From contig NC_092677.1 of the NCBI RefSeq assembly GCF_964355755.1, positions 15,408,101 to 15,472,100 on the forward strand: DNA of 64,000 nucleotides, read 5' to 3'. The notes below the pieces were generated by a model that saw nothing but the letters and a program-made list of their open reading frames with translations, made no database searches and was not told the origin of the DNA. The position numbers and the translations under genes are program-made. Below, in pieces: positions 6,101 to 38,100 of this stretch. Every line of letters begins with the position of its first letter. Position 1 is the stretch's first letter. The DNA is from Antedon mediterranea. Lineage: Eukaryota > Echinodermata > Crinoidea > Comatulida > Antedonidae.

Positions 6101-9100
6101 CCGAAATTACTAAACATGTTTAAAAATGTTGAAAGGTTTAAAAACATTTATATTTTTTTAATTTACACGTGCGTAGCCTGTCACTTTTGACGTGCTCGTA
6201 TAACGTAATTTCGAGTTGAAAAGAAAGTCAAGAAAACAGAAATCGGGCAAAAAGAGTGCGCAATAACATTTAACGCGTAGTGCGCGCGCAAAAATATGCG
6301 CACTCATGGCAATTTTGTAAACGCTTAAAATTGCATGAAACGTACTCTTATTTCATCGAAAATAAATTTTGAAAATTTTAAGCGCGCGTACGCATGCGTT
6401 ACATGCGCTACGCACGTAATTGTATTGCCATATTATGATGATTTATGCCCTGAAATTTATGAGTACCAAATTTTATTTAATTGTGATTCATGGTTGTGAA
6501 GATATGATTACAAACGTGATTTCGTTAAATCGTGCGTAGACCGCGTAATTTTTTATTGCGCACCGTGAAAACATAACCACATCGATTCCTGGCCATTAGG
6601 AATATACTGTGAAAAATTGACCTAGCTAGATTAAACTGATATCAAGATAAGGTCAGAAAGCGATAAAACGCATAGTGATACCGGACCGACAGACAGACAG
6701 ACAGACCAACAGACAGACAGACCGACAGCAGACCGACAGACAGACAGACAGACCGACCGACCGACATAGTGAACTAAAGAGTCGCTTCCACGCGACTAAA
6801 AACATATAAGCATGGTTAATGTATAAGATTATAAAAGAAAGAAAATGTATTAATGATGACATGTATAAAAATTAATCAAAGATAAAAACGCATCTCATTT
6901 GTATTTATGACAAAATTGTTCAAAGAGAAAAAAAAATTGTTGATAACGCAGGTATAAAGAAAGTTATATAAGATTATAAAAGAAAGAAAATGCATTTACG
7001 TTAACATGTATAAAAATTAATTAAAGATAAAAACGCATTTTAAGTTGTATTTATTTTCAAGCAAAAGGAAGAATTAAAAAGATAAAAATTGTTAAAAAGA
7101 GAAAAAAATGTTGTTAATTGATAATGTATGTACAAAGAATATAAGTATAATTAATATATAAAGTCTCCAGGACCAGGACTTCTACTTTGAAAATATCAGC
7201 CCTACTGAAGGCCTAAACAAGTGGATCTTTTTTCCCTTTATCTGGGAGAGGGCCCACCCCAGCCTACGCTCTGTGCTAAAATGCCATAATGAAAATATAA
7301 ATACAATTATTGTATTAAAATACATATAAGATCATCATTACTTTTAAATTCCAGATGTTTGTGACGTACCTCATGATTCTGGTTCAAATTGTGGGAATGC
7401 AATCTATGTATTGAGATATTATTACGACAGTGGTTCGTCAAGCTGTATTGCATTTTCATATCAATGTAATGGAAATGGCAACAATTTTGATTCAATAGAG
7501 TCGTGTATGAATGCATGCCAAGGTAAGTTAAGTGAAAGCGCATATTTATTTACAGTTTTTTTTTTCAAATAATACACACCAAAAGAAAATACAACGCAAC
7601 ACATTGTCAATTTATCACCACCTCTATATGATCGTTAGATTTCTGCTTAGTGAAACCTGACTAAATCTAAAAATAAAAGGGGCAAAAGAACAGCCAATAT
7701 TCCAAACCAACATCGGCACCCCTCAAGGTGATAGCTTAAGCCCGGTCTTATTCACTGTTTACCTTGAGTCTGCCCTACAAGGAATCCGAAAAAATAACCA
7801 AACAAAAATCCCTCAAAAGATAACATATGCTGATCATGTAGATTTTTTAAGTCTAAACAGCAAGCATAACGTCAACCAATTAGAACGCCATCTATCAACT
7901 TTCAACTTAAATGTAAATTTAAAAAAAACAGAACACACGATCGTAAGACGACAAAAAGAAGACATACAAGAACAATGGAGAAACACGAAAAAAGTAGGAT
8001 CGCTCCTTGGTGACAGACAAGACATAATTAGAAGAAAACAACTAGCGCGTGTTGCAATGACCAAACTAAACTCGATGTGGCTTCGAAAAGATAAAATCAA
8101 ATTAAAAATACGTAGCTTTACAACTCACTAGTAAAGTATATTACTCTACAACTCCGAAACATGGGGGCTCACAAAAGAAGAAGCACATAAACTTGACACA
8201 TTTCACAGACAACAACTTCGCAAAATTATAGGTATCAGGTTTTCCAGACAGGATATCGAACATAAATTTATACAGAAGGACAGGAACAAAACAATTTCGT
8301 TAGAAATAGTCGACGCACGATGGAGACTATTGGGTCACATACTCAGACAAGACCCATATACACCAGCACAGCAGTAAGCTATTATTTCAGCAACACTACC
8401 AATATAAAATTTCGAGGAAGACCGAGAACCATCCTACCAATAACTCTCAGCAACGACCTACTCACCCTTTATAAGCAGAACACAAACATCATGTATCCCG
8501 GACAATTGAAAACCAAGAACGACATCAAACAACTTAAAACAACAAGCCAATGAAAGATCCGATTGGAAGAAACTGGTAAAAGAGAAATACGGAGCAGTCG
8601 ACAGATTTTTCAGCGGAGAGGCAGTAATCATCATCATATATATGGTCATAATTATATTTTATTAAATGTGTTTTGTCTCTTTATATTAGTAGTCTCAACT
8701 CCATGTGATAGTTCTCCTTGTCTTAATGGAGGTACTTGTACCAACACTGCTACAGGCTACAGTTGTACATGTACAAGTTCGTATACTGGCACAAGGTGTG
8801 AAACACTAGGTAAGATTACATTAAACACAAATATCGGCTAATTAGTTGAATGTCTTGGTATATATCGTGTGGTATCATTGTGATCAGAAACAACTTACAT
8901 TACGTCACTAGCTAGTTTCGATACAATGAAAATGAATAAAAACACATCACAATTAAACATAGTTCTATTGTTTATAGATGTTCATTATTTTCCAGTAATG
9001 AATGATGAGCGGCACTTATTAATGATGAACGTTTTGTGAAAATATTTACTTAACCTTACCAATAGTAGCTGGTGCATGCACAATAAATGTATGATATTAT

Positions 9101-12100: not shown

Positions 12101-15100
12101 AGGTGTGATTTTGGGAATTACAAAGTGATCCTATGCTGGCTATTAGGAACCTATGTCTGGGTCATTTGAGGGCAAAATAAAGTCTCTACAGACATTTTAG
12201 TCACATTGTATATGCAAACATTGAGAAATGGGGTCGAAGGTCAAATGTTGTACTTCCGGTCGTTTTTTCGTAAAATTTTTCATTAGAGTAAATATAAATA
12301 TATACATTTTGAATAGATCAGTGAAAAAATCAACTCTCTCGGACTAGTAGTTTTTGAGATATGGTAACCTTGTAATTTCACCCTAATTTGCATATTTAAG
12401 CTAATTTGCATATCATCGGGATGAGTGACAGAGGTGTGATGCTCAAATTTTGATCTCCTCATCATATATGACCATTTAAAAAAGAAAAATCTCTGTTTGC
12501 AATTTGTTTCACTTTGGGCTGTTTTTTTTGCTAGATTGACTAGCCTATATTTCGAAAAAAAAAAAAAAATTAATAAAAACAACAAATATATGTCGAAATT
12601 TCGATATAGCAAACAACAAATAAAAAAAATGTTTTGTTTTGTGTTTTTTTACGTATGTCGAAATTTCGAAAAACAAAATACATTGCACATTGGCCGTCGT
12701 TCATTTCAAATGTCTAATATTAGTGTTTTAGAAGTAAATTTCATATTGCCAGTTTGTTAATTCTATGTTGTCTCCCAGGGCTAGACAGTATAGCTCTTAG
12801 GCATAGCTAAACGAAGTTATACATAATTTCCCGGTTTACGCACGTATTTATATGTTGACATTTTAAAATTGCAAAACAAATAACAATTTGTTGTTTTATT
12901 TATTTGTTGTTTGTTTTGCTATCATGTCAAAATTTCGATATAGCTAGCTATATTTATATTCATGTGACAGGATTAGGCTTTCTTAACAAAAAAGAGCTAT
13001 TTCTGCAACATCTTGTGTATTACTATATTATACAGGAACTCGGCTGTTCTAATGCTTGACAAGAAACAACAGGTCATTTAACATAATACTTTTCCTCTAG
13101 ATATATGCACCCTATCACTAGTAGCGGGAACATGCGCAGTAGATCCTATGTTACGATATTACTTTGACGGCACGACATGTCAGCCATTTGCCTTTTATTG
13201 TAATGAGAATGCCAACAACTTTCAATCCAGCGAAGATTGTGAAAGTGCACGCGGAGCTAAATATGTGAACTAACAAGGACAAATTTTAAAGAAAAATACA
13301 ATATTTCTTTAAGGAAAAGTTAAAGATTTTAAGCTGTTTTTATGAATTTTTTTTTATTGAATTTTTTTACTATAGGCGTTAATCCATGTAGTTCTGCTCC
13401 TTGTCAAAATGGTGGGGTATGTAATACTCTTGGAACAAGCTTTACCTGCACGTGCTCTGGTTGTTGGATTGGAAATAACTGTGAAATAGGTTTGTTTCTT
13501 TCGTATATTTAGTGCACGCCCGTAACCTCCAGTGAAAAACTGCAATGAGCTTTGGTGGTCTCTAGTTTGAAAAGGGCAATAGAAGAAAAAGAAGGGTTCA
13601 TTCGTTAGCTTATTTACAAGTTATCGACGTCTGTTTTTGTGAAACAGGTCAGTGGCCTACCAACATTTGCAAGAAAATAATTTTAATATTGATATAATCA
13701 ACATAATGATTCTACTCTTTGATTAGAGGGTAATCATTTATTATAACATTGGTAATTTGTTTTCACTAGCTCAAAACCCTTGTGCCAACAACGTTTGTCA
13801 GAATGGAGGAGCGTGCGTTGCAGTAGCTGGTTCCTGTACTTCTTACACATGTACCTGTCCATCATGTTTCTCAGGAACATTCTGTGAAATAGGTAATTTT
13901 ACTAAACTATTAGTGATGTGCATGCCGCAGACAGACTATGACTATGCCTTCTTTCTTGATCAGTGTAAATTTGAATGTATACAGGGCATTAAATAAATGG
14001 TTTTTCTATTAGGCCAGGATCCATGTGCTGGAAGTGCATGTCAAAACGGAGGAGTGTGTACTGCTATTGCTGGTGTTTGTACTGCTTACACGTGTTCCTG
14101 TTCAGCATGCTTCACCGGTGCTTTTTGTGAAACAGGTCAGTGGCCTACCAAAATGTGCAAGAAAATAATTATAATATTGATATAATCCACATAATGATTC
14201 TACTCTTTAATTAGAGAGTAATAAGTTATTATAACATTGGTATTTTGTTTCACTAGCTCAAACCCCTTGTGCCAACAACGTTTGTCAGAATGGAGGAACG
14301 TGCGTTGCAGTATCTGGTTCTTGTACTTCTTACACATGTTCCTGTCCATCTTGTTTCTCAGGAACATTCTGTGAAATAGGTAATTATACTAAACTATTAG
14401 CGATGTGCATGCCGCAGGCAGACTAGAACTATGCCCTCTTTCTTGATCAGTGTGAATTTGAATGTTTTCAGGCCATTAAATAAAATATTTTTTATTAGGC
14501 CAGGACCCATGTGCTGGAAGTGCATGTCAAAACGGAGGAGTGTGTACTGCTATTGCTGGTTTTTGTACTGCTTACACGTGTTCCTGTCCAACATGCTTCA
14601 CCGGAGCTTTTTGTGAAACAGGTCAGTGGCCTACCAACATTTGCAAGAAAATAATTATTTATTTATTTATTTATTTATTAGGTTATATGCATGCATTCAT
14701 GCATATAACCTCTTGATTCTGTCAAAATCTTTATTTATTTCTTTATTTATTTATTTATTTGTCCGTCAATTATCTTGATATCAGTTTCATGTAACTAAGT
14801 CAATTTTTCAGAGTGTATTCCTTATGGCCAGGAATCGATGTGGTTATGTTTTCACGGTGCGCAATCAAACATTACGCGGTCTACGCGCGATTTTACAAAA
14901 TCATGTTTGTAATCATATCTTCACTAGCATGAATCACAATTAAACAAAATTTGGTACTCATAAATTTCAGGTCATATTTCATTATATGGCAATACAATTA
15001 CGTGCGTAGCGCATATAACGCTTGCGTACGCGCGCTTAAAATGTTCAAAATTGTCAAAATTTATTTTCGATGAAATTAGAGTACGTTTCAGGCAATTTTA

Positions 15101-18100
15101 AGCGTTTAAAAAATTGCCATGAGTGCGCCGATTTTTTCACGCGCACTGCGCGTTAAACGTTGATGCGCCCTCTTTTTGCCCGATTTCTGTTTTACAATCT
15201 TTCTTTAATAATATCATCATATTTGATTCACGTTTCAACTCGAAATTGCGTTATACGAGCACGTCAAAAGTGACTGGCTACGCACGTATAAGTTAACAAA
15301 ATGGTGAAAATATGCTAAATTTTAAAATTAATATATATCGTCAGAATGCAGGGGAACACCTATTTTTTATCTCATTTTCTTGAAGTGTATGTATCATATG
15401 TATGATTTATTGTCAAATTAAGAGAACAAAAGTTGATTAAGTCATCATTAATTGCATATTAAATTAAAAAAAAATAATTTCGACAATCAAACAAATTATG
15501 ACATTTTCTTAAGCCAAAATACCAAACTTAACATTAACTTTCTTCCTTCCAAAGTTCATATATTAAAGTTAAAAGTATATAGTTTGACAGTGCATCATTT
15601 GTTTACATTTTAAAGATGTCATCATAGTAAAAAATTATAATTCATTCTATTTGCACCAAACTGGTTACTGCATAGTAAATACACGGAGGAATTTTTCTAC
15701 AACTTTTAGTCAGTTGTGTATGGCTCGATGGTCTGTGCTCGTGTCTATGGCATTCAAGGTACCGAGATCGAGTCTCACCTCGGGAAACGAAATAAGATTT
15801 TTTTTTTATTATCCGTATTGTTTGTTCAAATTTATTTCTTAGTGTATAGATTATACACATGATTTATAATGAAATCTAGATAAAAATTAACTTATGTCTT
15901 TATTAGTATGTAACAACAAATGTGGTTTATGACATTATACGCATATGGATCTTTGATCGGATTGTGATACCGGCTATGGTGGTCGCGTTAGCAAGGTCCT
16001 ATCATATATTATAAATAATTAAAGATTCTGAGAAAATCAATCAATCAATATATCTTTTAAAAGTCAATTATCTTTATTTAAATCAATGCATATAACCTAT
16101 AATTCGTCATAATGACGAATTAAATCTAGTTTATTTATTTATTCTTTCCTTAGCACTATTTGTCCGTCAATTATCTTGATATCAGTTTCATCTAACTAAG
16201 TCAATTTTTCAGAGTATATTCCTTATGGCCAGGAATCGATGTGGTTATGTTTTCACGGAGCGCAATCAAACATTACGCGGTCTACGCGCGATTTAACGAA
16301 ATCACGTTTGTAATCATATCTTCACAAGCATGAATCACTTTTAAACAAAATTTGGTACTCATAAATTTCAGGTCATATTTCATCATATGGCAATACAATT
16401 ACGTGCGTAGCGCATATAACGCATGCGTATGCACGCTTAAAATGTTCAAAATATTCAGAATTTATTTTCGATGAAATTAGAGTACGTTTCAGCAAAGAAT
16501 ATAAATAGGTAAAGAATCAACAGTACGCGCTGTTATACATAGAAGGATAGGAAACGCGGACGCTTATTCATGGACGCGTAAGAATCCAGCAGCCGAACGA
16601 CGGCGGGCTCTAGATATGGTTCCCGTCTAATCCCACGTTTCGATGTATCGTGATGATCTGATGTGTTCTCGCGTCTGTGCTCTACTAATTTTGATATTAT
16701 TAATATTTTGATAATTATTTTGATAAATAATCATCGTTTGCATTTTGATAGATATTTACAATAAAAGTTTTACCTTACCCACGCCTGAAGGTGGCGCACC
16801 TCTTCTAGAGAAAAAGAAATGCGCCACCTTCAGGCGTAGGCAAATAGTAACCCGGATGTGGTTTACACCGCCAACGGAACTGTTGTATCTTTTCCTTTTA
16901 TTATCTTTGGTTTCAGGCAATTTTAAGCGTTTAAAAATTGCCATAAGTGCGCAGATTTTTGCACGCGCACTGCGCGTCAAACGTTATTGCGCACTGTTTT
17001 TGTCCGATTACTGTTGTATAACCTTTCTTTAACAATATCATCATATTGTATTATCTTTTCAACGCCAAACAGCGTTATACGAGTACGTCAAAAGTGACAG
17101 GCTACGCACGTGTAAGTTAACAAAATGGTGGAAATATGCTAAATTTTAAAATTAATATATATCGTTAGAATGCTCGGAAACACCGATTTTTTATTTCATT
17201 TTCTTGAAGTGTATGTATCATATGTATGATTTATTATGAAATCAAGAGAACAAAAGTTATTAAGTCATCATTAATGGCATATTAAATTTACAAAAATTAA
17301 TTTCGACAATCAAACAAATTATAAAATTTTCTTAGGCCGAAATAACAAACTTAACATTAACTTTCTTCCTTAAGAAGTTCATATATTAAAGTTAAAAGTA
17401 TATAGTTTGACAGTGCATCATTTTTAAAAATCTTTAAAGATGTCATCATAGTAAAACATTATAATTTATTGCGGTATGTAATAATCTATCTGCACCAAAG
17501 TGGTTACTGCATAGTAAATACACGGAGGAAGATTTTCATAATTTTTAGTCAGTTGTGTATGGCTCGGTGGTCTTTGCTCGTGTCTATAGCATTCAAGGTA
17601 CCGAGTTCGAGTCTCACCTTGGGAAACGAAACGAAATAAGATTTTTTTTTTATTATCCGTATTGTTTGTTCAATTGTATTTATTTCTTAGTGTATAGATT
17701 ATACAGATGATTTATAATGAAATTTATTTAAAAACACAAAATGTGGTTTATTACATTATATACGCAGAAGGATCTTTGATCGGATTATGATACCGGCTAT
17801 TGTATTTGCATTAGCAAGATCCTATCACATATTATAAATAACTAAAGATTCTGAGAAAATCAATCAATCAAAATATCTTAAATCAATCAATTATCTTTAT
17901 TTAAATCAATGCATATAACCTATAATTCGTCATAGTGACGAATTAAATATAGTTTTAATATTGATAACATCAACATAATGATTCTACTCTTTGATAAGAG
18001 AGTAATAATTTATTATAACATTGGTATTTTGTTTCACTAGCTCAAAACCCTTGTTCCAACAACGTTTGTCAGAATGGAGGAGCTTGCGTTGCAGTATCTG

Positions 18101-21100
18101 GTTCTTGTACTTCTTACACATGTTCCTGTCCATCATGTTTCTCAGGAACATTCTGTGAAATAGGTAATTATACTAAACTATTAGCGATGTGCATGCCGCA
18201 GACAGACTAGAACTATGCCCACTTTCTTGATCAGTGTGAAGTTGAATGTATACAGGCCATTAAATAAAATGTTTTTCTATTAGGCCAGGATCCATGTGCT
18301 GGAAGTGCATGTCAAAACTGAGGAGTGTGTACTGCTATTGCTGTTTTTTGTACTGCTTACACGTGTTCATGTCGAGCATGCTTCACCGGTGCTTTTTGTG
18401 AAACATGTTAGTGGCTTACCAAAATGTGCAAGAAAAGAATTACAATATTGATATAATCAACATAATGATTCTACTCTTTGATTAGAGAGTAATAATTTAT
18501 TATAACATTGGTATTTTGTTTCACTAGCTCAAAACCCTTGTGCCAACAACGTTTGTCAGAATGGAGGAGCTTGCGTTGCAGTATCTGGTTCTTGTACTTC
18601 TTACACATGTTCCTGTCTATCATGTTTCTCAGGAACATTCTGTGAAATAGGTAATTATACTAAACTATTAGCGATGTACATGTCGCAGACAGACTAGGAA
18701 TATGCCCTCTTTCTTGATCAGTGGGAATTTGAATGAATACAGGCCAGTAAATACAATTGTTTTCTATTAGGCCAGGATCCATGTGCTGGAAGTGCATGTC
18801 AAAACGGAGGAGTGTGTACTGCTATTGCTGGTATTTGTACTGCTTACACGTGTTCCTGTCCAGCATGCTTTACCGGAGCTTTTTGTGAAACAGGTTAGGG
18901 GCCTACCAAAATTTACAAGAAAATAATTATAATATTTATATAACCAACATAATGATTGTACTCTTTGATTAGAGAGTAATAATTTATTATAACATTGGTA
19001 TTTTGTTTCACTAGCTCAAAACCCTTGTGCCAACAATGTTTGTCAGAATGGAGGAGCTTGTGTTGCAGTATCTGGTTCTTGTACTTCTTACACATGTTCC
19101 TGTCCATCATGTTTCTCAGGAACATTCTGTGAAATAGGTAATTATACTAAACTATTAGCGATGTGCATGCCGCAGACAGACTAGAACTATGCCCACTTTC
19201 TTGATCAGTGTGAAGTTGAATGTATACAGGCCATTAAATAAAATGTTTTTCTATTAGGCCAGGATCCATGTGCTGGAAGTGCATGTCAAAACGGAGGAGT
19301 GTGTACTGCTATTGCTGTTTTTTGTACTGCTTACACGTGTTCATGTCGAGCATGCTTCACCGGTGCTTTTTGTGAAACATGTTAGTGGCTTACCAAAATG
19401 TGCAAGAAAAGAATTACAATATTGATATAATCAACATAATGATTCTACTCTTTGATTAGAGAGTAATAATTTATTATAACATTGGTATTTTGTTTCACTA
19501 GCTCAAAACCCTTGTGTCAACAACGTTTGTCAGAATGGAGGAGCTTGCGTTGCAGTATCTGGTTCTTGTACTTCTTACACATGTTCCTGTCCATCATGTT
19601 TCTCAGGAACATTCTGTGAAATAGGTAATTATACTAAACTATTAGCGATGTACATGTCGCAGACAGACTAGGAATATGCCCTCTTTCTTGATCAGTGGGA
19701 ATTTGAATGAATACAGGCCAGTAAATACAATTGTTTTCTATTAGGCCAGGATCCATGTGCTGGAAGTGCATGTCAAAACGGAGGAGTGTGTACTGCTATT
19801 GCTGGTATTTGTACTGCTTACACGTGTTCCTGTCCAGCATGCTTTACCGGAGCTTTTTGTGAAACAGGTTAGGGGCCTACCAAAATTTACAAGAAAATAA
19901 TTATAATATTTATATAACCAACATAATGATTGTACTCTTTGATTAGAGAGTAATAATTTATTATAACATTGGTATTTTGTTTCACTAGCTCAAAACCCTT
20001 GTGCCAACAATGTTTGTCAGAATGGAGGAGCTTGTGTTGCAGTATCTGGTTCTTGTACTTCTTACACATGTTCCTGTCCATCATGTTTCTCAGGAACATT
20101 CTGTGAAATAGGTAATTATACTAAACTATTAGCGATGTGCATGTCGCAGACAGATTAGGACTATGCCCTCTTTCTTGATCAGTGGGAATTTGAATGAATA
20201 CAGGCCAGTAAATAAAATTGTTTTCTATTAGGCCAGGATCCATGTGCTGGGAGTGCATGTCAAAACGGAGGAGTGTGTACTGCTATTGCTGGTGTTTGTA
20301 CTGCTTACACGTGTTCCTGTCCAGCATGCTTTACTGGAGCTTTTTGTGAAACAGGTCAGTGGCCTACCAAAATGTGCAAGAAAATAATTATAATATTGAT
20401 ATAATCAACATAATGATTCTACTCTTTGATTAGAGAGTAATACGTTATTATAACATTGGTATTTTGTTTTCACTAGCTCAAAACCCTTGTGCCAACAACG
20501 TTTGTCAGAATGGAGGAGCTTGCGTTGCAGTATCTGGTTTCTGTACTTCTTACACATGTACCTGTCCATCATGTTTCTCAGGAACATTCTGTGAAATAGG
20601 TAATTATACTTAACTATTAGCGATGTACATGCCGCAGACAGACTAGGACTATGCCCTCTTTCTTGATCAGTGGGAATTTGAATGAATACAGGGCATTAAA
20701 TAAATGGTTTTTCTATTAGGCCAGGATCCATGTGCTGGAAGTGCATGTCAAAACGGAGGAGTGTGTACTGCTATTGCTGGTGTTTGTACTGCTTACGCGT
20801 GTTCCTGTCCAGCATGCTTTACTGGAGCTTTTTGTGAAACAGGTCAGTGTCCTACCAAAATTTTCAAGAAAATAATTATAATATTGATACAATCAACATA
20901 ATGATTCTACTCCTTGATAAGAGAGTAATCATTTATTATAACATTGGTATTTTGTTTTCACTAGCTCAAAACCCTTGTGCCAACAACGTTTGTCAGAATG
21001 GAGGGGCGTGCGTTGCAGTATCTGGATCCTGTACTTCTTACACATGTACCTGTTCATCATGTTTCTCAGGAACATTCTGTGAAATAGGTAATTATACTAA

Positions 21101-24100
21101 ACTATTAGTGATGTGCATGCCGCAGACAGACTAGAACTATGCCTTCTTTCTTGATCAGTGTGAATTTGAATGTATACAGGGCATTAAATAAATGGTTTTT
21201 CTATTAGGCCAGGATCCATGTTCTGGAAGTGCATGTCAAAACGGAGGAGTGTGTACTGCTATTGCTGGTGTTTGTACTGCTTACGCGTGTTCCTGTCCAG
21301 CATGCTTTACTGGAGCTTTTTGTGAAACAGGTCAGTGTCCTACCAAAATTTTCAAGAAAATAATTATAATATTGATACAATCAACATAATGATTCTACTC
21401 CTTGATAAGAGAGTAATCATTTATTATAACATTGGTATTTTGTTTTCACTAGCTCAAAACCCTTGTGCCAACAACGTTTGTCAGAATGGAGGGGCGTGCG
21501 TTGCAGTATCTGGATCCTGTACTTCTTACACATGTACCTGTTCATCATGTTTCTCAGGAACATTCTGTGAAATAGGTAATTATACTAAACTATTAGTGAT
21601 GTGCATGCCGCAGACAGACTAGAACTATGCCTTCTTTCTTGATCAGTGTGAATTTGAATGTATACAGGGCATTAAATAAATGGTTTTTCTATTAGGCCAG
21701 GATCCATGTTCTGGAAGTGCATGTCAAAACGGAGGAGTGTGTACTACTATTACTGGTGTTTGTACTGCTGTACCAACGATTTGCAAGGAAATTGAATTAA
21801 TTTTTTTTTTTAAATTAAAGGACATATAGTTCTACTAATATTTTGATTGTTTGTTTTTATTAGCTCAAAACCCTTGTGCCAACAACGTTTGCCAGAATGG
21901 AGGAGCTTGTGTCGCACTATCTGGTTCTTGTACTTCTTACACATGTACCTGCCCATCATGTTTCTCAGGAACATTCTGTGAAATAGGTAATTATACTTAA
22001 CTATTAGAGATGTGCATGTCGCAGACAGACCAGGACTATGCCCACTTTCTTGATCAGTGGGAATTTGAATGAATACAGGCCATTAAATAAAATTGTTTTC
22101 TATTAGGCCAGGATCCACTCTGTGAAATAGGTAATTAAACTAGCCGATTGGCGATGTGTATGCCGCCGACTGACTATAGGGCCATGCTAAGTGTTTGTCA
22201 ATGTGTTTTATAATTAAAAAAATGAGAACAATCCATTTATAAAAAAAAATTCTATTAGGTCAAGATCCATGTTCTGGAAGTGCATGTCAAAATGGAGGAG
22301 TGTGTACTGCTATTGCTGGCATTTGTACTGCTTACACGTGTTCCTGTCCAGCATGTTTCACCGGTGCTTTTTGTGAAATAGGTTAGTACCCAAAAAAAGT
22401 CTACACGACAATTATATCAATATGTGTTTCACAATAATCGACATACTGTAATTATACTCCAAGTATACATGTTTTGTAATTCTTTGTTTTTATTAGCTCA
22501 AACACCCTGCGACAATAACCTTTGTCAGAATGGAGGTGCCTGTGTTGCTGTTACTGGTTCTTGTACTGCATACACATGTATCTGTCCAACGTGCTTCTCT
22601 GGATCATTCTGTGAAATAGGTAGGCTGGATAAGTAAACATGAATGTAAATGTTCATCTAGTTTTTAATAAAAACAAATGAATGTATACTATTATTTGTAT
22701 CAAAGCAATGGTAAATTACGAAAATAGATGGTAAATACCTTCTTGACGGTTCCGTTGTTTTTTTTTTCTCTTTTGTGGGGATTTTACCCACTTTTATTTC
22801 TTATAAAAATTCATATGTTTGTAAATAATATTTATCTTTATATAATATGCACAATTTTCATTAATATTTGTTTCTCTACTCTCAATTAATACAGATGTAA
22901 GTTTTTCTTATACATACATTAAGATATAATAATAATTATAATTATAAAACAAAATTATATTTTCATAACTATATACAAGTATTTCAACTCAAATATCCAT
23001 AACAAAATAATTATAATTTTTAATTAATACCAATTATCAATATGTTATACTTTAAACATGTTCATAGCATTTCTTTAACACTTTCTTTTTACATGAACAT
23101 AATTATAATTTTCTTATGGTATTATATTTTATACACATTAAATTTAAGTATAAATTGTTAATATACACATATAATTCCTTTATGAATGTATATTTCTAAT
23201 TTAATCATGCTTTGATTCTTATGTAACATTCTTCTACATAAATTCATATAATAATTCATAGTTTTATCTAGTATAGTTTGTTGTTTGCAACATTTTATCT
23301 CATAAAAAAAAAATTGTTTATATTTCTACCAAGCTAACTTTTTTTTTTTTTCAATTATTAATAAAACATTTGAAGTTATATATAGTATTAGTTGAGCAGC
23401 ATGAATTATAATAGTACAATGTAGTATTTTCTTTTACAATAACTTATTTTTTATTTTTTATTTTAAACGATTATCAGATGACTGCTAAACACACTATGCA
23501 TAATGTATCACTTGTTGTTAAAACACAATTATTTGCTTTAACTTTACATATCCGAGATAATATTTTGTATCATCTGCCATCTTTTCCTTCCATTTACTTT
23601 ATCAATATATATGTCACCTTTTATTCGTAATGTAATACTGTATTTAAAAGAGTTCCATATAGATATGGACTTATGCAACTCTGACATTATTTTGTCTTTA
23701 TATATAGTAAATGCAGTTAAGGAATAGATGTAACCTATTAATCTAATTTCTGTTCCAAGTACAATGTTTCTAAAGGATACATTGTCATACCCCAAAAATC
23801 TTAGAATATTACAAATTTTTATCCAGAATTCTCGAATATATGTACAACTAAATGACATATGGTTTTCATCTTGAATATCCCCACATTTTTTACAGGTACC
23901 GGTATCCTTTATTTTCCATATAAAAAGCCTTTTGTTTGTTGCCAAGATTCTATGTAATAGTTTATAATTAAATTCAGCTAATTTTTTGTCTTTCATTTTG
24001 CATATTTTATTTTAGCCAACATGATTTCCAATATATATAATTATTATTGAAATATTGTTCCCATTTTTTGTGTGCAAGGGGTAAAATAAATACCTCTTTT

Positions 24101-27100
24101 ACAAAACTTAAATATACTGTTGTTGTTTGTATAACTTCAAACCGATTTTCAGCAGTATAATCTATAATATTGAAGATACAGTTATTTGATATTTTTATAG
24201 TGCGTTTCCATTCTTTAGGTATCGCCTTAATTATGCATAAGTATTCGTTTAGCCAATTGGATTTACATTTTAATTTAATTTTCAATTCTTCTGAAGTTAA
24301 AAATTTATTCTTCTTGACGATATCTTTAATTAAGATGATATCACTTTCGATCCAATGTTTATACAATAGTGATTTATGTTTTAATTGTATCAAGGAGTTA
24401 CCCCACAACTGCTCATTCATTATTTCTTCATAACTTTGCACAGGATTTTTATTGCATTTGTTATATTCCGTACAAGCTTCCGTTGTTCATTACATGGATA
24501 GATAACTAAAAATTGATAATCTAAATATTTCAGAATAATGGCAAAGCTCGATCAGTGGGTTATATGATTTTTTTTCCATATCACACGCTCACAAATTTAT
24601 AACACTTCTTTGAATAATTCCTTGTCGGTGCCAATGGCGTTAATAATACTGATACAATTCTAAAATGTTTTCTGTTTGCCTATTCGCATTCCAGTTATAA
24701 TACTGAATCATTTAATATATTTTAGGTCAGGATCCATGTGCTGGACATCTTTGTCAGAATGGAGGATTGTGCAATGCTATTGCTGGGGTCTGTTCTGCGT
24801 ACACATGCACCTGTCTAGGATGTTTTACTGGTTCATTTTGCGAAACAGGTTAATCAGCAAGCTTTTACTGGATATAATTATTGTATTACTTTATTATTTA
24901 GATTTTTATTTGTGTTGTGTAATGTTTAATTTGTGATAATCTTTGCCAGACTTTTTCCTGCAATATCTTGTTCCTGACCAGCTTAAATTTGCCTGCCTAG
25001 CTTAAATTTGCCTGCCCAGCTTAAATGTGCCTGCCCATTAATATAATTCTTTAACTCATCTTCAACAAAATGAATCATCAATATTTTGATACACACTGTA
25101 CGTTTTTTCAGGTCAGAATGCTTGTGGTAACAACCTTTGTCAGAATGGAGGTGCTTGTGTTGCTGTTGCTGGTTCCTGTACTGCTTACACATGTTCATGT
25201 AACGGATGCTTTACTGGAACTTTCTGTGAAATAGGTAAACTATATAACTATTTTTAGTTATGTTATTTATAGGCAATATAAATACCGTTCAGCAATAGGC
25301 CTAACTGTGTACACAATGTTATTCTTCGCTTTAGGCCAGAATGCTTGTGCTAACAACCTTTGCCAGAATGGAGCTGGCTGTACCGCTGCTGCTGGTTCTT
25401 GTACCTCTTACACTTGTACCTGTCCATCATGCTTCTCAGGAACATTCTGTGAAATAGGTAGTTACTAAACTATTAGTGATATAAATGTCACAGCAGACGT
25501 ATTGCGGGCATGAACTCTCTTTGTCTGTGTGTTTTAAAATGTTTACATTCTCAACCCAAGGCTTATTTGAGCAACCTCACATAATATGAACTTATTAAAT
25601 ATGTTATTAAAAGTGTTTTATAAATTAAAATGAAACAATAAACAAATGAATAAATACAGGTCATCCATTGAATAATATTCTTTTCTTATTAGGTCAGGAT
25701 CCATGTGCTGGAAATCTGTGTCAGAATGGAGGAATGTGTACTGCTATCGCTGGTGTATGTACTTCTTACACGTGTTCCTGTCCAGCATGTTTCACCGGTG
25801 CTTTTTGTGAAACAGGTTAGTACCCTAAAAAAACATGTTAGTGGCCTACCAACATGTACAAAACAATTGTATCAATATGTTATACTTGATAATCAACATT
25901 ATGATTCTACACCTTATAAAATTGATTTCCTTAGCTCAAAATTCTTGCGACAATAACCTTTGTCAGAATGGAGGTGCCTGTGTTGCTGTTACTGGTTCCT
26001 GTACTGCTTACACATGTATATGTCCGACATGTTTCTCTGGAACATTCTGTGAAACAGGTAAACAATTATTTTCATTATTTCTATTCTATAATTATAAATA
26101 TGTTAATTTTAACTGAAATAATATAAATGACTTTTAGTAATAACTTGGTAAAAAATGTATGTTTCTATTTCAGGTGAGAATGCTTGTGCCAACAACCTTT
26201 GTCAGAACGGAGGTGCTTGTGTTGCTGTTGCTGGTTCCTGTACTGCTTACACATGTACATGTCCAGCATGCTTCACTGGAACATTCTGTGAAACAGGTAA
26301 TTATTAATTAATTCTCTTTAGTTATGTTATGTACCTATAGGCAATAAAAATAGCTTCCAGCAATTCACAATGCTTTTCTTTTTAAAGGTGAGAATGCTTG
26401 TTCTAACAATATTTGTCAGAATGGAGGTACCTGTGTTGCTGTTGCTGGTTCGTGTACTGCATATACATGTTCCTGTAGTGGATGTTTTACTGGAACTTTT
26501 TGTGAAATAGGTAGACCTTTGAATTATTGTAGTCTTTAGGCCAAAGTGATATTTTTTTTTATAGATTTTGTGACAACAACCTCTTTCAGAAATGAACTGC
26601 TTGAGTTGCTGGATCTTGTACTGCATACACGGGTGTATGTTCACATGTTCCTGAACATCCTGAACTCTTATAGTTATACATTATTTAGGCTCTATTACTT
26701 TCAGCAATAACTTTGTCTACTATTTTGTTCAGGTCAGAATGCTTGTGACAACAACTTGTGTCAGAATGGAGGTGCTTGTGTTGCTGGTACTGGTTCGTGT
26801 ACTGCATACACATGCATCTGTCCAACGTGCTTCTCTGGAACATTCTGTGAAATTGGTAAATTCAGTTATAGTTAAATGGTAGTATTATCGTAGGCAATAT
26901 AACTTAGTTCTAAAAATACAATAACTTGTTACACATGTATTGTTGTTTTGTTTAGGTCAGAATGCTTGTGTCAACAACATTTGTCAGAATGGAGGAGTTT
27001 GTAACACTGTTGCTGGTTCTTGTACTGCATACACATGTACCTGCAGTGGATGTTACACAGGAGCATTCTGTGAAACAGGTAAACAATTATACTTCTACAG

Positions 27101-30100
27101 TCATTCTCTGGTGTGATGATAACGTCTAAAATAGTCTTCATTCGATTAACACAAATATCTGCTACAGTAATGAATCTACATGTACCACTGTTTGGATATT
27201 GTACCCGTTTTATTCAATAGAAAAGTAGTGCGTGTATTCTGCTGCTCAATGTTTATCCCCCAGATATTTCATTTTCAAGTCATATTTATTTAAAACACTG
27301 TAAAAAGTAATAAACAATAATTCAATGAAAGTTAGATATTCTGAATGCAAGGTTTTTTTTTTGTATTTTTTTAAACAGATACCAGTGCTTGCGCAACAGA
27401 TATTTGTCAAAACGGAGGAACCTGTATTATTGGAGCTACGTGTACACAATTCTCTTGTTCCTGTCCGGCTTGTTCTAGTGGTTTCATGTGTGACGTCAGT
27501 AAGTTTATATATATATATATATATAAGTAACAACGTATCTGTTGTGTCATATGCGCAACCAGTAAGTTCAGAGACGTAGAAAAAAATGCACGTGGTGACA
27601 TTGTTCTTCCACATCATCGTCATCCACATAATAATAAATGAAAAAGAATGTATTAAAAATTAAAAGTTGGCTCATTTTTGTATAAGATGTAATGGTAATA
27701 ATTAAAAAAGATACACTTTTCCCTCCTCACCCCCTAACAAAAGAATTTTTTAACCAAAAAACTTCTTTCGATTTTATTATCTCAATTTAGATTTTTACTT
27801 ATTTATGTTTATCTCCCTTGATTAATACACAGTAACATTTTTGCTATTTAAAAAATAATGTTTGTAAATCTAACGATAATAATCTAAGTCTAATTTCTTC
27901 TGGTACTTAGTTGATTGATTTAAATGAACGTACTTCCTTTTTTAATACCTTATTCATTTGTTTTATTGTTATTGATTGAGTGAAGTGAAAATAGTCTAGG
28001 CTATAGGGCCTACATATATATATATATATATTTATAAAATGTAGTATTCATTTGTTTTATTGTTGCTGATTGAAAGAAAGAAAATAAATGATTACGTTGA
28101 ATTGAATTGAATTGAAGTTATATTTATTATCAAAGTATTATAACAATTACGATTGTTTTGATTATTTATGAACAATTTAGTTACTAATGCGTGCAGCAAC
28201 AACCCTTGTTTGAACGGTGGACAATGTCAGACATCAACCGATTCATGCAATGCATTTTCATGTATTTGCCCTTCTGGCTTTTCTGGTACAGTATGCGAGG
28301 GTAAGTCTTATTTCTTTTTTTTTGTAATGGTTGAGTTAGTTTAACTAAATGTTTAGCTACAGGATGATATATAGCTAGCACCTGAATGAATATGTGCGCT
28401 ATATAAGTTTTTATTATTATTGCTATTACTATGAGTTTCTTTGTCATCAAAACAAATATTTATAAGAAATAATACATAAAAAGAAAAGCTCAAAACAGCT
28501 TGTGAACAAAAGACTAGACTATGTAAAAAGTAAAATACTACCGATAAAATTGTCACTTAATATGAACAAGGCCATATACATGGCTGCAGTTGCGTGCGCA
28601 AATTTGAGTTAGTGTTTACCGACCGACCGACATAGTGAGCTGTAGAGTCGCGTTTGCACGCGACTAAAAATAATAACAATACTCCATAATTATCAAAACT
28701 GCAGTCTTTCTTATCTAAATCTTTGTGTACGTTGTATTCTTTTAATCTGTGAAAACATGTGGAAATAAATATCTAGGATAGTATTAGTTTCATAATTTGT
28801 GAATTCCTTTCACAAGTTGTGAAAGTAATTTTATTAAATTATTTCAAATTAAAATTTAAAAACAATAATAAGTGTAAATATCATTCATATCTAACGATAG
28901 TATATTTCATTATTTGATTGTTTTTATGTATCCCACACACTATGTTTAATTATTATTATTATTAAAGATACTTTATGAAAATAATTCAAAAAATAAATCA
29001 AATAGAAATAATAATGTTGTATTTAATAGTTTCAACAGGTCCCTGTAGTAGTTCTCCTTGTCTGAACGGAGGTCAGTGTACTGACTTTACAACATTTTAT
29101 ACCTGTGCCTGTCCAACTTCATACACTGGTACAAGATGTGAAATATTTTGTAAGTTATATTGAAAAATATACAAATTGTCCAAAATAAATGTCATGGTTC
29201 AGTATTATTTTCAATTTTAAGATAGTTCGTCTTGTATCTTTTTTTTCTTTTCCATTTATTGCTCTTTAAAAATCATCACACGAGAATTGTCTCATAATGA
29301 CAACAAAGCATGATCATTTAAGTTAACAATATTTTTGCTTGTTTATAGTACAACCATGCAGTTCAAACCCATGTCTTAACGGTGGTGTGTGCCTTCAATC
29401 TGGAACAATGTACATGTGCGCATGTGATACTGGATACATTGGGACAAATTGCGAGACTTTCAGCGGAAGTAAGTATCTCAACAAATAAAAGCAAAATTAG
29501 TCATTGTTTTCTTTTTCTAGAAAACCAACAAAATGAAGATTTAAAGATATTTTGTTTTTGAGTAGTTGAATCATTTTAGTGGAAACATTTTTGTTTATTG
29601 TTTCTGTTTATTTATTTTTAAAGTCTTGGAAATTAAGTTACTTATGAATTGATTTCTAAGTAAGTAAATTCTGGCACTTTCAAATTAAAGAATTGATTGA
29701 TTCAACAGTGTTTGGTAAAGGTGCTTCTATAATAGGAAAAAATTCAGAAACTCAAAATAGGCCTAAAAAATTACATTATTGACTGATAACATTTGAATGT
29801 GACAATGTAAGTAGGCCTAGTATTACTGGGTGTTAACTTCATTAACCCAACCAACAAATATGATAAAATGTGGTAATAGTTGTTTGTTGTTATTACAGCG
29901 AGTCCATGTGATTCAAATCCATGCCAGAATGGAGGTGTCTGTAGTCTAACTACTACATCAACTTATATGTGTATGTGCTCTGGAAGTTACATAGGAACCA
30001 ACTGTGAAACATGTATGTAAGATGTTTTTTTTTTCTAATTTTTTTTGGCTTCAAATTCATTTAGTGTACGGAAAACATAACAACTAAAGACGAAGCTTAA

Positions 30101-32783: not shown

Positions 32784-34901
32784 ATTGACCTGGCTCCACA
32801 AATAATTCTAGGAGACTTCAACAAATGCACTTTGAAGGATGTGCTACCTACTTATGAACAAGCAATCTCTGTAGAAACAAGAGGCAGTGCTACACTGGAC
32901 TTATGCTACTGCAATGTGAAAAATGCATACACAAGCAAAATCTGTTCAAAACTTGGAAATTCTGATCATAACAATATACATATTATGCCAAAATACAAGA
33001 CAAAATTAAAACAGTCAAAACCAGTAGTTATACAACAGCAGTTGTGGAGTACAGAGGTGGTTGAAAAGTTGTGTGGCTGTCTAGCATGTACTGATTGGGA
33101 TATTATGCTCGATGTTGATGATACACTTGATGTAAGGGTATCTACAATCTCAGCATACATATCCTTTTGTGTTGATATGGCTATACCTAAAGTAACAAAA
33201 AAGATATATGCAAATGAAAAACCATGGATCTCTAACCAACTAAGGAAACTGTTACAAGATAAGCGTATAGCGCATAGAGGAAAAGATACTCCTAAAGTCA
33301 AGGAAATTCAAAAGGAAATAAACAAGTGTATAAAAAATAGTAAACTGAAATACAAAAAAACACTAGAAAATAAATTTAAAGACAAAAATCCTAAAGCAGC
33401 ATGGAAAGCAATTAAAACACTAACCGGCTACAAAGAAACCATATTGCGTGTACATGGAAGTGAGAACTTCGCTAATGACTTAAACAACTTTTTCTGTCGT
33501 TTTGAATCCGAGATATTAGTTACCAAAAATGAAAATGAAGACACAGAAATCCGCGAAAATGAGACTTCATTAGTAAACAATGCAGTCATAAATGTAGTTG
33601 ATGTGCGTAATGTATTCGCCAAAGTAAAGCCTGGTAAAAGTACTGGCCCTGATGGAATTGGAAATCGTGTTATTAAATACTGCAACCAAGAGTTGGCACC
33701 GATATATACCAAACTTTTTAATGAGAGTTTAGCAAGTGGTACAGTGCCCAATCAATGGAAAACGGCCTGTATCTCACCTATTCCTAAGATAAAAAATCCC
33801 AAGGAACTTAATGACTATAGGCCAATAGCTATCACATCCAATGTTGGTAAGTGCCTAGAAAAGATTGTACTTAGGCAGTTTCTTGATCAGACCAAATTGT
33901 TTCTCGATCCTCTCCAATTTGCCTATCAGAGTAATAGAAGTGTTGAAGATGCTGTGCTCTTCCACTTACATAATATTTACCAACATTTAGATGTGCCTAA
34001 ATCATATGTAAGATGTTTGTATATAGATTTTTCTAGTGCTTTTAATACCGTTGAACCTGGTTCATTAGTACGCAAACTTAAAGAAATGAACGTAAACGAC
34101 ACATTGACTTCATGGATATATAATTTCTTAACAAAAAGGTTCCAGTATGTTAAACTAAACGGTATTTTATCTGATAAAAGAACTGTTAGCATTGGCACGC
34201 CACAAGGGCCTGTTATCTCCCCAATGTTGTTTTCACTGTTCACCAGCAGTTTCAGAGCCAATTCAAATGAATGTTGTATAGTAAAATATGCAGATGACCC
34301 AGTCATCACTGGATACATTACTGGCAATGATGAAACAAGCTATAGACAACTAGGATGTGATTTTTATCACTGGTGCTGCAATAACAACCTGAAACTAAAC
34401 ATAAAGAAAACAAAAGAAATGCAAATTGATTTTAGGAAAATTAAAGAACCCTTAGAACCTCTGATTATAAATGAAAATGAGATTGAAGTAGTAAATGAGT
34501 ACAAATATCTGGGTTGTATAATTGACAATAAGCTAAATTGGATAAATAATGTAAATAAAGCCACATGCAAAGCCAACCAAAGGATGTTTATTTTAAGAAA
34601 AATGAAGTACCTACAAATTGACATAACTATACTTAAATTGTTTTATAACTCTGTAATTCTCAGTGTAATACTTTTTTGTAATGTTTGTTTTTATGGTAAT
34701 ACAATGCAAAAAAATAAAATTAAACTTAATCGAATAGGAAATAGAGCAATTAAACTAGTAGGAGAGCACTTACCTGATGTTGAATCCTTGTATAAAGAAA
34801 ATGTGTTAAAAAAAGTAAAAAGTATCATTGATGATGAAACACATCCTCTTCACAAACAATTTTGCTCTCATGAATTCTGGCATAAGACTACGTGCACTTA
34901 A
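32784..34901 (+). pseudogene. LINE endonuclease-end plus reverse transcriptase ORF
   Basis: About 705 codons. Endonuclease end: GDFN, LDLCYC and SDHNNI. Polymerase: KPGKSTGPDGI, DYRPIAITSNVGK, LYIDFSSAFN (first catalytic Asp), GTPQGPVISPMLF and KYADDPVITG (catalytic DD kept), then NLKLNIKKTKEM and YKYLGCIID. The frame ends HKTTCT, but the usual family C-terminus (KTKRFWCSFVPNAI) lies in another frame from 34873 to 34977, so one frameshift near 34865-34873 has cut it short. Relatively young by its open length, yet unable to move on its own without its 5' half. Confidence 0.85.
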
Positions 34902-35164: not shown

Positions 35165-38100
35165 TAATTACTATAGCATGATTGACATGCGCAGAACCCA
35201 TTATTCGACTGTGCGCATGTTTATTGTGGTATATTAACCATTTATGTGAAAAAATAAAAGGGTCGAAAAATGGCCATTTGTCGAAAATTTGCCTGTACTA
35301 TATATAGTACAGGGATTTTTTCCCAAAAATGGCCAAATTTCGACCTTTTTATTTTTCGTTAAAACCGATAACTATAGCATAATTGACATGCGCAGAACCC
35401 GTTATTCGACTCTGCACATGTTTATTGTGCTATAGTAACCATATATGTCCAAAAATGAAAGGGTCGAGAAATAGCTATTTTTCGAAAATTTCCCTGTACT
35501 ATAGTACAGGGTTCTTTTCCAAAAATTGCCAAATTTCGACCTTTTTCTTTTCGATAAAATTGGCTACTATAGCATGATTGACATGCGCAGAACCCATTAT
35601 TCGACTGCGCACATGTTTATTGTGGTATAGTAACCATTTATGTGAAAAAATAAAAGGGTCGAAAAATGGACATTTTTCGAAAATTTGCCTGTACTATAGT
35701 ACAGGGATTTTTTCCAAAAATGGCCAAATTTTGACCTTTTTATTTTTCGATAAAATTGGCTACTATAGCATGATTGACATGCGCAGAACCCATTATTCGA
35801 CTGTGCGCATGTTTATTGTGGTATAGTAACCTTTTATGTGAAAAAAATAAAAGGGTCGAAAAATGGATATTTTTGAGAAAATTTCCCTGTACTATAGTAC
35901 AGGGATTTTTTCCAAATAATTATGACCAAATGTCGAACTTTTTATTTTTCGATAAAACTGATTACTATAGCATAGTTGACATGCGGAGAACCCATTATTC
36001 GACTCTGCGCATGTTTATTGTTCTATAGTAACTCTTTATGTCAAAAAATGAAAGGGTCGAAAAATTGCTTTTTTTCGAAATTTCCCTGTACAGGGATTTT
36101 TTTTTTAAATGGCCAAATTTCGGCCTCTTTATTTTTCGATAAAACTGGCTACTATAGCATGATTGACATGCGCAGAACCCATTATACAACAGTGCGAATG
36201 TTTATTGTGGTATAGTAACCATTTATGTGAAAAAATAAAAGGGTAAAAAATGGCAATTTTTCGAAAATTGGCCTATACTATAGTACCGGGATTTTTTCCA
36301 AATATGACAAAATTTCGAACTTTTTATTTTTCGATAAAACTGATTACTATAGCATAGTTGACATGCGCAAAACCCATTATTCGACTCTGCGCATGTTTAT
36401 TGTGGTATAGTAACCATTTATGTCCAAAAATAAAAGGGTCGAAAAAAGGCTATTTTTCGAAATTTCCCTGTACTATAGTACAGGGATTTTTTCCAAAAAT
36501 GGCCAGTTTTCGACCTTTTTATTTTCGATAAAATTGGCTACTATAGCATGATTGACATGCGCAGAACCCATTATTCGACTGTTCGCATGTTTATTGTGGT
36601 ATAGTACCCATTTATGTCAAAAATGAAAGGGTCGAAAAAAGGCGATTTTTCGAAAATTTCCCTGTACTATAGTAAAGGGATTTTTTTCCAAAAATGGCCA
36701 AATTTCGACCTTTTTATTTTTCGCTAAAACTGATTACTATAGCATAATTGACATGCGCAGAACCCATTATTCGACTCTGCGCATGTTTATTGTGGTATAG
36801 TACCCATTTATGTCAAAAAATGAAAGGGTCGAAAAAAGGCGATTTTTCGAAAATTTTCCTGTACTATAGTACAAGGACTTTTTCAAAAAATGGCCAAATT
36901 TCGAACTTTTTATTTTTCGATAATACTGATTACTATAGCATAGTTGACATGCGCAGAACCCATTATTTGACTCTGCGCATGTTTATTGTGCTATAGTAAC
37001 CATTTATGTCCAAAAAAACTGATTTCTAAAGCATAATTGACATGCGCAGAACCCATTATTCGACTCTGCGCATGTTTATTGTGCTATAGTAACCATTTAT
37101 GTCCAAAAATGAAAGGGTCCAAAAATAGCCATTTTTCGAAAATTTCCCTGCACTATAGTACAGGGGATTTTTTCCCAAAAATGGCCAAATTTCGACCTTT
37201 TTATTTTTGATAAAATTGGCTACTATAGCATGATTGACATGCGCAGAACCCATTATTCGACTGCGCGCATGTGTATTGTGGTATAGTAACCATTTATGTA
37301 AAAAAATAAAAGGGTTGAAAAATGGGCATTTTTCGAAAATTTGCCTGTACCATAGTACAGGGATTTTTTCCAAAAATGGCCAAATTTTGACCTTTTTATT
37401 TTTCGATAAAATTGGCTACTATAGCATGATTGACATGCGCAGAACGCATTATTCGACTGTGCGCATGTTTATTGTGGTATAGTAACCATTTATGTGAAAA
37501 AATAAAAGGGTCGAAAAATGGATATTTTTCGAAAATTTCCCTGTACTATAGTACAGGGATTTTTTCCAAATATGACCAAATTTCGAAATTTTTATTTTTC
37601 GATAAAACTGATTACTATAGCATAGTTGACATGCGCAGAACCAGTTATTCGACTCTGCGCATGTTTATTGTGGTATAGTAACCATTTATGTCCAAAAATG
37701 AAAGGGTCGAGAAATAGCCATTTTTGAGAAAATTTCCCTGTACTATAGTACAGGGAGTTTTTCCAAATATGACCAAATGTCGAACTTTTTATTTTTCGAT
37801 AAAACTGATTACTATAGCATAGTTGACATGCGGAGAACCCATTATTCGACTCTGCGCATGTTTATTGTGCTATAGTAACCCTTTATGTCAAAAAATGAAA
37901 GGGTCGAAAAATTGCTTTTTTTCGAAATTTCCCTGTACTATAATAGTACAGGGATTTTTTTTTTAAATGGCCAAATTTCGGCCTTTTTATTTTTCGATAA
38001 AATTGGCTACTATAGCATGATTGACATGCGCATAACCCATTATTCAACTGTGCGAATGTTTATTGTGGTATAGTAACCATTTATGTGAAAAAATAAAAGG

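What the first reader, a model, noticed from the sequence alone, without database searches (positions are those of the whole stretch)
13770..27498. An 8-cysteine EGF variant in a long exon array
Thirty-one intact exons encode EGF-like modules with two added cysteines: one between canonical Cys3 and Cys4 (GSC/GVC), one between Cys5 and Cys6 (PSC/PAC). Spacing is 4-5-6-4-1-2-5. Laminin-type EGFs also have eight, but their extra pair follows Cys6. The consistent pairing suggests a fourth disulfide and a distinct EGF subfamily.
Basis: partly seen in the sequence, partly recalled or inferred. Interest (0 to 1): 0.8.

Follow-up and report, generated by a model that had tools for sequence, protein, structure and literature searches.

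The report
EGF chain stapled between neighbouring modules
A huge animal cell-surface protein is built from dozens of small EGF modules, each carrying two extra cysteines that most likely bond each module to its neighbours rather than within itself, which would give a stiff, calcium-free protein rod not described in the papers searched.

Summary
In detail: 31 intact exons encode EGF-like modules with two extra cysteines, a (between Cys3 and Cys4) and b (between Cys5 and Cys6). Nine further arrays in the genome have such caps in this order; one array with both flanks read, on C1, does not (10 of 11 obey). Of 380 neighbouring module pairs, 333 join a b to a following a, 44 have neither and 3 mismatch, all in the C1 gene; pairing inside modules would leave 25 half-modules with an orphan cysteine. 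Bonding b of module n to a of module n+1 fits the published EGF-EGF interface: the aromatic four residues after Cys5 packs on the next module's hairpin, and b directly precedes that residue. None of 325 modules has the Glu/Gln of the calcium site. The gene appears to encode a very large single-pass membrane protein. The bonding is inferred: no two-module structure could be run, and the C1 array and a lone EGF elsewhere speak partly against it.

The parts
13082..13270 (+). Kunitz/BPTI-like domain just upstream of the array
   Evidence: Pfam PF00014 E 2.2e-9, 37.8 bits
13376..13489 (+). N-terminal cap exon: 7-cysteine EGF module with b only (4-5-8-1-2-5)
   Evidence: Pfam EGF 25.4 bits, cut-off 21.5
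13770..27498 (+). array of 31 intact 8-cysteine (a+b) EGF exons, with two damaged copies
17949..21769 (+). block of two-exon units (A type + B type), period 487 bp, 7.8 copies, 95% matches
   Evidence: Tandem Repeats Finder
18284..18406 (+). B-type exon with in-frame TGA near 18319 (limits by analogy with the other exons)
21696..21760 (+). truncated B-type exon (approximate limits)
28181..28300 (+). C-terminal cap exon: 7-cysteine EGF module with a only (4-5-6-4-1-8)
   Evidence: Pfam EGF 31.8 bits
12..8799 (+). seven upstream 6-cysteine EGF exons (Cys1 at 12, 566, 1646, 2160, 2601, 3254, 8704); three more lie in the 3.1 kb before the window
   Evidence: Pfam EGF 35.2 bits for the one at 3254
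29033..30030 (+). three downstream 6-cysteine EGF exons (approximate limits)
   Evidence: Pfam EGF 30.9 bits for the first
30916..30948 (+). small exon reading [11 protein letters not shown], furin-like site (recalled motif); a similar stretch lies in the neighbouring paralogue
31265..31410 (+). last EGF exon, 6 cysteines (approximate limits)
   Evidence: Pfam EGF 36.6 bits; 47% identity to the paralogue over 49 residues
31706..31900 (+). hydrophobic segment, read as membrane-spanning, and short tail ending KDKIALVN-stop
   Evidence: 43% identity to the paralogue over 65 residues; no topology program was run

Best explanation
The array is a rod of Notch/Delta-type EGF modules in the ectodomain of a very large single-pass membrane protein. 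Each module has the usual three EGF disulfides. The extra cysteine b (three residues after Cys5, where the Gly of the Gly-aromatic packing motif normally sits) bonds to the extra cysteine a (usually five residues before Cys4, in the main hairpin) of the NEXT module, so each junction carries a covalent staple. The first module needs only b and the last only a, which is what the caps show. The staple would take over the job that calcium does between calcium-binding EGF modules: holding neighbours in a fixed, extended orientation. Shown: the cysteine pattern, the caps and their order, the missing calcium-site residues, purifying selection, gene layout. Inferred: disulfide partners, stiffness, cleavage at the RRRR site, surface location.
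For: (1) Order b-only, n x (a+b), a-only in 10 of 11 arrays with both flanks read: window and C8 at 15.35, 10.5, 1.196, 1.216, 1.58, 1.60, 1.61, 1.63 and 27.8 Mb; the exception is C1. (2) Over 15 regions: 325 a+b, 13 a-only, 12 b-only, 45 canonical; of 380 neighbouring pairs 333 are b then a, 44 neither, 3 mismatched, whereas 25 modules mismatch under intra-module pairing; all 13 a-only follow a b-bearing module and 11 of 12 b-only precede an a-bearing one. [quoted passage not shown] Gly-aromatic motif in PMC3906135 (passages). Here the residue after b is Tyr or Phe in 316 of 325. (5) Glu/Gln before Cys1, part of the calcium consensus, in 0 of 325; Asp/Asn at Cys3+2 in 4 of 325. (6) Most NOTCH3 mutations that cause CADASIL change the cysteine number from even to odd (PMC8991201, abstract and passages), so unpaired caps should be costly. 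(7) Of 24 half-modules checked, 23 have a phase-compatible AG and 24 a phase-compatible GT within 45 nt.
Against: The C1 array (37 a+b modules, 13836164 to 13860348) is flanked on both sides by canonical modules, leaving an orphan a and an orphan b under chain pairing; the third mismatch there (b-only 13833533 before b-only 13833991) could be met by an extra linker cysteine in the second exon, but that is a guess. Two C-terminal ends had no cap in the DNA read: C2 near 13747106 and C8 1.33 Mb. N-terminal ends at C2 show only a partial b half. The a-only cap at C8 1618796 has no phase-compatible AG, so that gene may be decaying. One calcium-consensus position, Asp/Asn two before Cys1, is kept in 297 of 325 modules. 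In another gene family a lone EGF (C3:33909820) has b plus a Cys3-Cys4 cysteine at a different place in one module, which could pair internally. The ten arrays are related and form about four groups. AlphaFold of a single module was poor (pLDDT 58) and says nothing on distances.
Confidence: 0.77

Rival explanations
1. Fourth disulfide within each module: a and b of the same module pair.
For: 325 of 350 modules with extra cysteines have both; the C1 array has no caps at its two ends; the lone EGF at C3:33909820 has two extra cysteines in one module.
Against: 25 half-modules would carry an orphan cysteine; those of the ten obeying arrays sit at the ends in fixed polarity (b-only first, a-only last), and no intact half-module was found inside them, only damaged copies and fragments. 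Published EGF-EGF interfaces put the Gly-aromatic motif at the junction with the next module and the hairpin turn at the junction with the previous one.
Confidence: 0.15
2. The extra cysteines cross-link different molecules (side by side or end to end), as a matrix glue.
For: Teneurin EGF2 and EGF5 each have a free cysteine used for covalent dimers (PMC9058538, passages); an unpaired cysteine in a fibrillin hybrid domain is suggested to form intermolecular bonds (PMC3306419, passages); the orphan a and b of the C1 array could serve end-to-end linkage (inference).
Against: Does not explain why caps are complementary and polar in 10 of 11 arrays.
Confidence: 0.06
3. No functional bond: the pattern is a by-product of exon duplication and the caps are unrelated leftovers.
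For: Exon blocks are plainly duplications; some copies are dead.
Against: Nonsynonymous sites change about a quarter as often as synonymous ones; C-terminal caps come in several unlike sequence types; the divergent 27.8 Mb array keeps the order.
Confidence: 0.02

Closest known systems
Notch/Delta-type EGF repeats (Pfam EGF PF00008, hEGF PF12661)
   Same: Six core cysteines in EGF spacing, six-residue linker, aromatic four after Cys5; best PDB profile matches are Notch1 EGFs, E 2.8e-16
   Different: Two added cysteines, usually a three-residue longer Cys3-Cys4 loop; four of four sampled modules below Pfam cut-offs
Calcium-binding EGF (EGF_CA PF07645; fibrillin, Notch EGF11-13)
   Same: Tandem modules whose junction is set by the Cys5-Cys6 aromatic packing on the next hairpin (PMC4826273, passages)
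   Different: Glu/Gln before Cys1 in 0 of 325 modules; proposed covalent junction instead of calcium
Laminin-type EGF (PF00053)
   Same: Eight cysteines
   Different: None of 104 reported genome matches lies in the window, but only 150 of 377 candidates were scored; no match to four sampled modules at E<=1
Integrin I-EGF
   Same: Eight cysteines in EGF frame (recalled)
   Different: Extra pair recalled as elsewhere in the module; no comparison run
Teneurin EGF2/EGF5
   Same: A cysteine of an EGF bonding outside its own module (PMC9058538, passages)
   Different: Between two molecules, two single sites, not a repeated chain

Membership tests
EGF-like domain (general) | six core cysteines in EGF spacing | tested here: met
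   profile matches Notch1 EGFs
EGF-like domain (Pfam PF00008) | score above curated cut-off | tested here: not met
   0 of 4 a+b modules sampled reach it; both window caps do
Laminin EGF | extra pair after Cys6; PF00053 match | tested here: not met
   spacing; no PF00053 match for 4 sampled modules; genome scan was capped
Calcium-binding EGF | Glu/Gln before Cys1 and Asp/Asn at Cys3+2 | tested here: not met
   0 of 325 and 4 of 325; Asp/Asn two before Cys1 is kept in 297 of 325; the ligand four before Cys1 was not counted
Calcium-binding EGF (works like) | aromatic at Cys5+4 for packing on the next module | tested here: met
   Tyr/Phe after b in 316 of 325
Chain-stapled EGF array (proposed) | b in module n if and only if a in module n+1 | tested here: met
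   377 of 380 pairs consistent; 3 exceptions, all in the C1 gene
Chain-stapled EGF array (proposed) | actual b-a disulfide between modules | not testable with these tools
   needs a structure or mass spectrometry
Integrin I-EGF | Cys1-Cys5 extra bond (recalled) | not tested
   recalled only

The most novel reading that the evidence does not exclude
An animal has a family of giant EGF proteins (one array has 107 intact a+b modules) in which the calcium clamp between modules is replaced by a daisy chain of inter-module disulfides, with dedicated half-modules starting and ending each chain: a distinct solution for a covalently locked, calcium-independent rod.
Probability: 0.7. Interest if true: 0.85.

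Novelty: new variant of a known kind. Interest (0 to 1): 0.72.

Why it matters
EGF modules are very common extracellular building blocks (recalled), and their six cysteines are described as forming three bonds within the domain (PMC8991201, passage). A natural chain of bonds between modules, with separate start and stop modules, would add a second way to make stiff EGF rods without calcium and a ready-made design for rigid protein fibres. It also gives a direct test: cysteine parity at array ends predicts disulfide topology.

Tried and rejected
Membership of Pfam EGF, laminin EGF and calcium-binding EGF was tested and not met for the features named. Bonding in the opposite direction (a of n to b of n+1) is rejected because it needs the caps reversed; skipping one module is rejected because it would leave orphans at both ends. 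A scan of viral contigs gave no relative. Four prokaryotic contigs gave EGFs, none of the a+b class; the regular expression called some of theirs '7 a-only' because of displaced or linker cysteines. AlphaFold of a single module was not confident. Literature: listings (terms on eight, extra or unpaired cysteines, inter-domain or adjacent-EGF disulfides, EGF packing, exon-duplicated giant EGF proteins) showed no such array; passages only were read in PMC4826273, PMC3906135, PMC10794152, PMC9058538, PMC8991201 and PMC3306419. Most subscription papers are not held, so novelty is not proven. The species was not identified: no COX1 match, and the 18S search failed.

In the count, hits of class 'other' and the damaged or partial modules listed were left out; two modules were added by hand (C1:13836164 with Cys4-x2-Cys5, and the C2:13675364 a-only cap found by the HMM); the N-terminal C2 regions L026 and L028 were not included, as their first module lacks Cys1. 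Only 150 of 1277 and 150 of 1292 candidates were scored, so further arrays may exist.
Full report
The window is part of a 354-Mb genome in 18 contigs (window = C8:15408101-15472100), by its genes an animal (inference). On the + strand a long gene runs through it. In the stretch 13770-27498 there are 31 intact exons, each encoding one EGF-like module with eight cysteines. Thirty have spacing 4-5-6-4-1-2-5 and the last 4-5-5-4-1-2-5. The two added cysteines are called a (between Cys3 and Cys4, five residues before Cys4) and b (between Cys5 and Cys6, three residues after Cys5). Two further copies are damaged: one has an in-frame TGA near 18319, the other is cut short. Exons are phase 1-1, so a skipped exon would keep the frame. 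A block at 17949-21769 is a 487-bp tandem repeat of 7.8 copies at 95% matches. Uncorrected differences per site are 0.025 nonsynonymous and 0.115 synonymous among 11 A-type exons, 0.028 and 0.111 among 9 B-type; introns in the block differ by 0.089 and 0.066, like the synonymous sites there, 0.084 and 0.069. The exons are therefore under purifying selection.

The exon just before the array (Cys1 at 13387) has seven cysteines: b but no a. The exon just after it (Cys1 at 28192) also has seven: a but no b. If a and b paired inside a module, both caps would have an orphan. If b of module n pairs with a of module n+1, every cysteine in the run finds a partner.

I tested this in other arrays of the same genome. 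Protein searches, capped at the 150 best candidates, found related modules in clusters on C8 and C2 and C1. Reading the DNA gave ten more arrays with both flanks in hand. Nine of them, like the window, run b-only, then a+b, then a-only: C8 at 15.35 (56 a+b modules), 10.5 (minus strand, 107), 1.196 (15), 1.216 (4), 1.58 (12), 1.60 (1), 1.61 (5), 1.63 (16) and 27.8 Mb (minus strand, 20). The tenth, on C1, does not. A profile scan found damaged copies and fragments in several arrays but no intact interior half-module in the ten that obey. Ends seen singly: a split b-only cap at C8 1.33 Mb and a-only caps at C2 13.79 and 13.675 Mb. No cap was found at the C-terminal ends at C2 13.747 Mb and C8 1.33 Mb, and only a partial b half at the N-terminal ends at C2 13.70 and 13.77 Mb. 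Of 24 half-modules checked for splice sites, 23 have a phase-compatible AG and all 24 a phase-compatible GT within 45 nt; the a-only cap at 1618796 has no such AG.

Counts over 15 regions: 325 a+b, 13 a-only, 12 b-only, 45 canonical. Neighbour pairs: 380, of which 333 are b then a, 44 neither, 2 b without a, 1 a without b. All 13 a-only modules follow a b-bearing module; 11 of 12 b-only modules precede an a-bearing one. The three mismatches all lie in the C1 gene, where an array of 37 a+b modules is flanked on both sides by canonical modules, and where two b-only modules stand in a row; the second of these may have an extra cysteine in its linker. The same gene has a b-only module directly followed by an a-only module. 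The C1 array is real counter-evidence and is reported as such. The arrays are related: judged by cap sequences and place, the ten that obey fall into about four groups (window with 15.35; 10.5; the six at 1.2-1.6 Mb; 27.8). If each group had its two caps labelled at random, the observed polarity in all four would have a chance of one in 256, about 0.004 (my arithmetic). Within the 1.2-1.6 Mb group C-terminal caps are of two kinds; one is 92% identical over 38 residues to an a+b module, with Ser in place of b. That is what selection against an orphan would leave.

The polarity agrees with known structures. In tandem EGF pairs the aromatic four residues after Cys5 of the first module packs on the main hairpin turn of the second (PMC4826273, passages), as part of a Gly-aromatic motif (PMC3906135, passages). 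Here b takes the Gly position and is followed by Tyr or Phe in 316 of 325 modules; a lies in the hairpin. In calcium-binding EGFs this junction is stiffened with the help of calcium. Glu/Gln before Cys1 is absent in all 325 modules and Asp/Asn at Cys3+2 is present in 4, although Asp/Asn two before Cys1 is kept in 297. I infer that the staple stands in for calcium. A single-module AlphaFold run was of low confidence (pLDDT 58) and cannot decide distances.

Gene layout: ordinary EGF exons, a Kunitz domain at 13082-13270, the capped array, ordinary EGF exons, a small exon with RRRRD at 30916-30948, a last EGF, and a hydrophobic segment with a short tail ending at 31900. The neighbouring gene at C8:15345-15391k has matching pieces at its end. 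The protein is therefore read as a very large single-pass surface protein; exon joining is inferred from splice sites and no transcript was available, and a cut by furin is a guess from the site.

Known relatives: best PDB profile matches are Notch1 EGFs. Four sampled a+b modules fall below every Pfam cut-off, while both caps pass the EGF cut-off. I found no report of a natural EGF-to-EGF disulfide array in the library searched (listings). PfRIPR, a cysteine-rich protein with EGF-like domains, has no inter-domain disulfides in its solved core (PMC10794152, passage); teneurin EGF2 and EGF5 have free cysteines that join two molecules (PMC9058538, passages); an unpaired cysteine in a fibrillin hybrid domain is suggested to act between molecules (PMC3306419, passages); most CADASIL mutations of NOTCH3 make the cysteine number odd (PMC8991201, passages).

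A caution from another gene family: a lone EGF at C3:33909820 has b and a Cys3-Cys4 cysteine at a different place; three paralogues have only the latter and one has neither. It could pair internally. It does not lie in an array: no other EGF was seen in the 3.8 kb read around it.

Noticed in passing
window 32784-34898 (+) and C8:15393108 (L005): A reverse-transcriptase ORF (RVT_1) lies about 1.3 kb past the membrane exon; a copy 97% identical over 637 residues lies at a similar place behind the neighbouring paralogue, although the matched gene ends are only 43-47% identical.
   Followed up: partly
window 50107-51036 and 59814-60767 (+): Two ORFs with extracellular Link (Xlink) domains, a likely tandem gene pair.
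   Followed up: partly
window 35167-43459: Long satellite-like array with period about 195 bp and a 93-bp sub-period.
   Followed up: no
L024, C1:13850609 and 13850732: Two a+b modules 123 nt apart in one open exon without an intron, a natural two-module unit for structure work.
   Followed up: no
L040, L041, L045-L047 (C3 and C4): Gene family with a lone EGF whose copies have zero, one or two extra cysteines.
   Followed up: partly
   Followed up: partly
window 7661-8128 (+) and 23547-24011 (-): Further reverse-transcriptase remnants between the gene's EGF exons; the second matches zf-RVT just below its cut-off.
   Followed up: no
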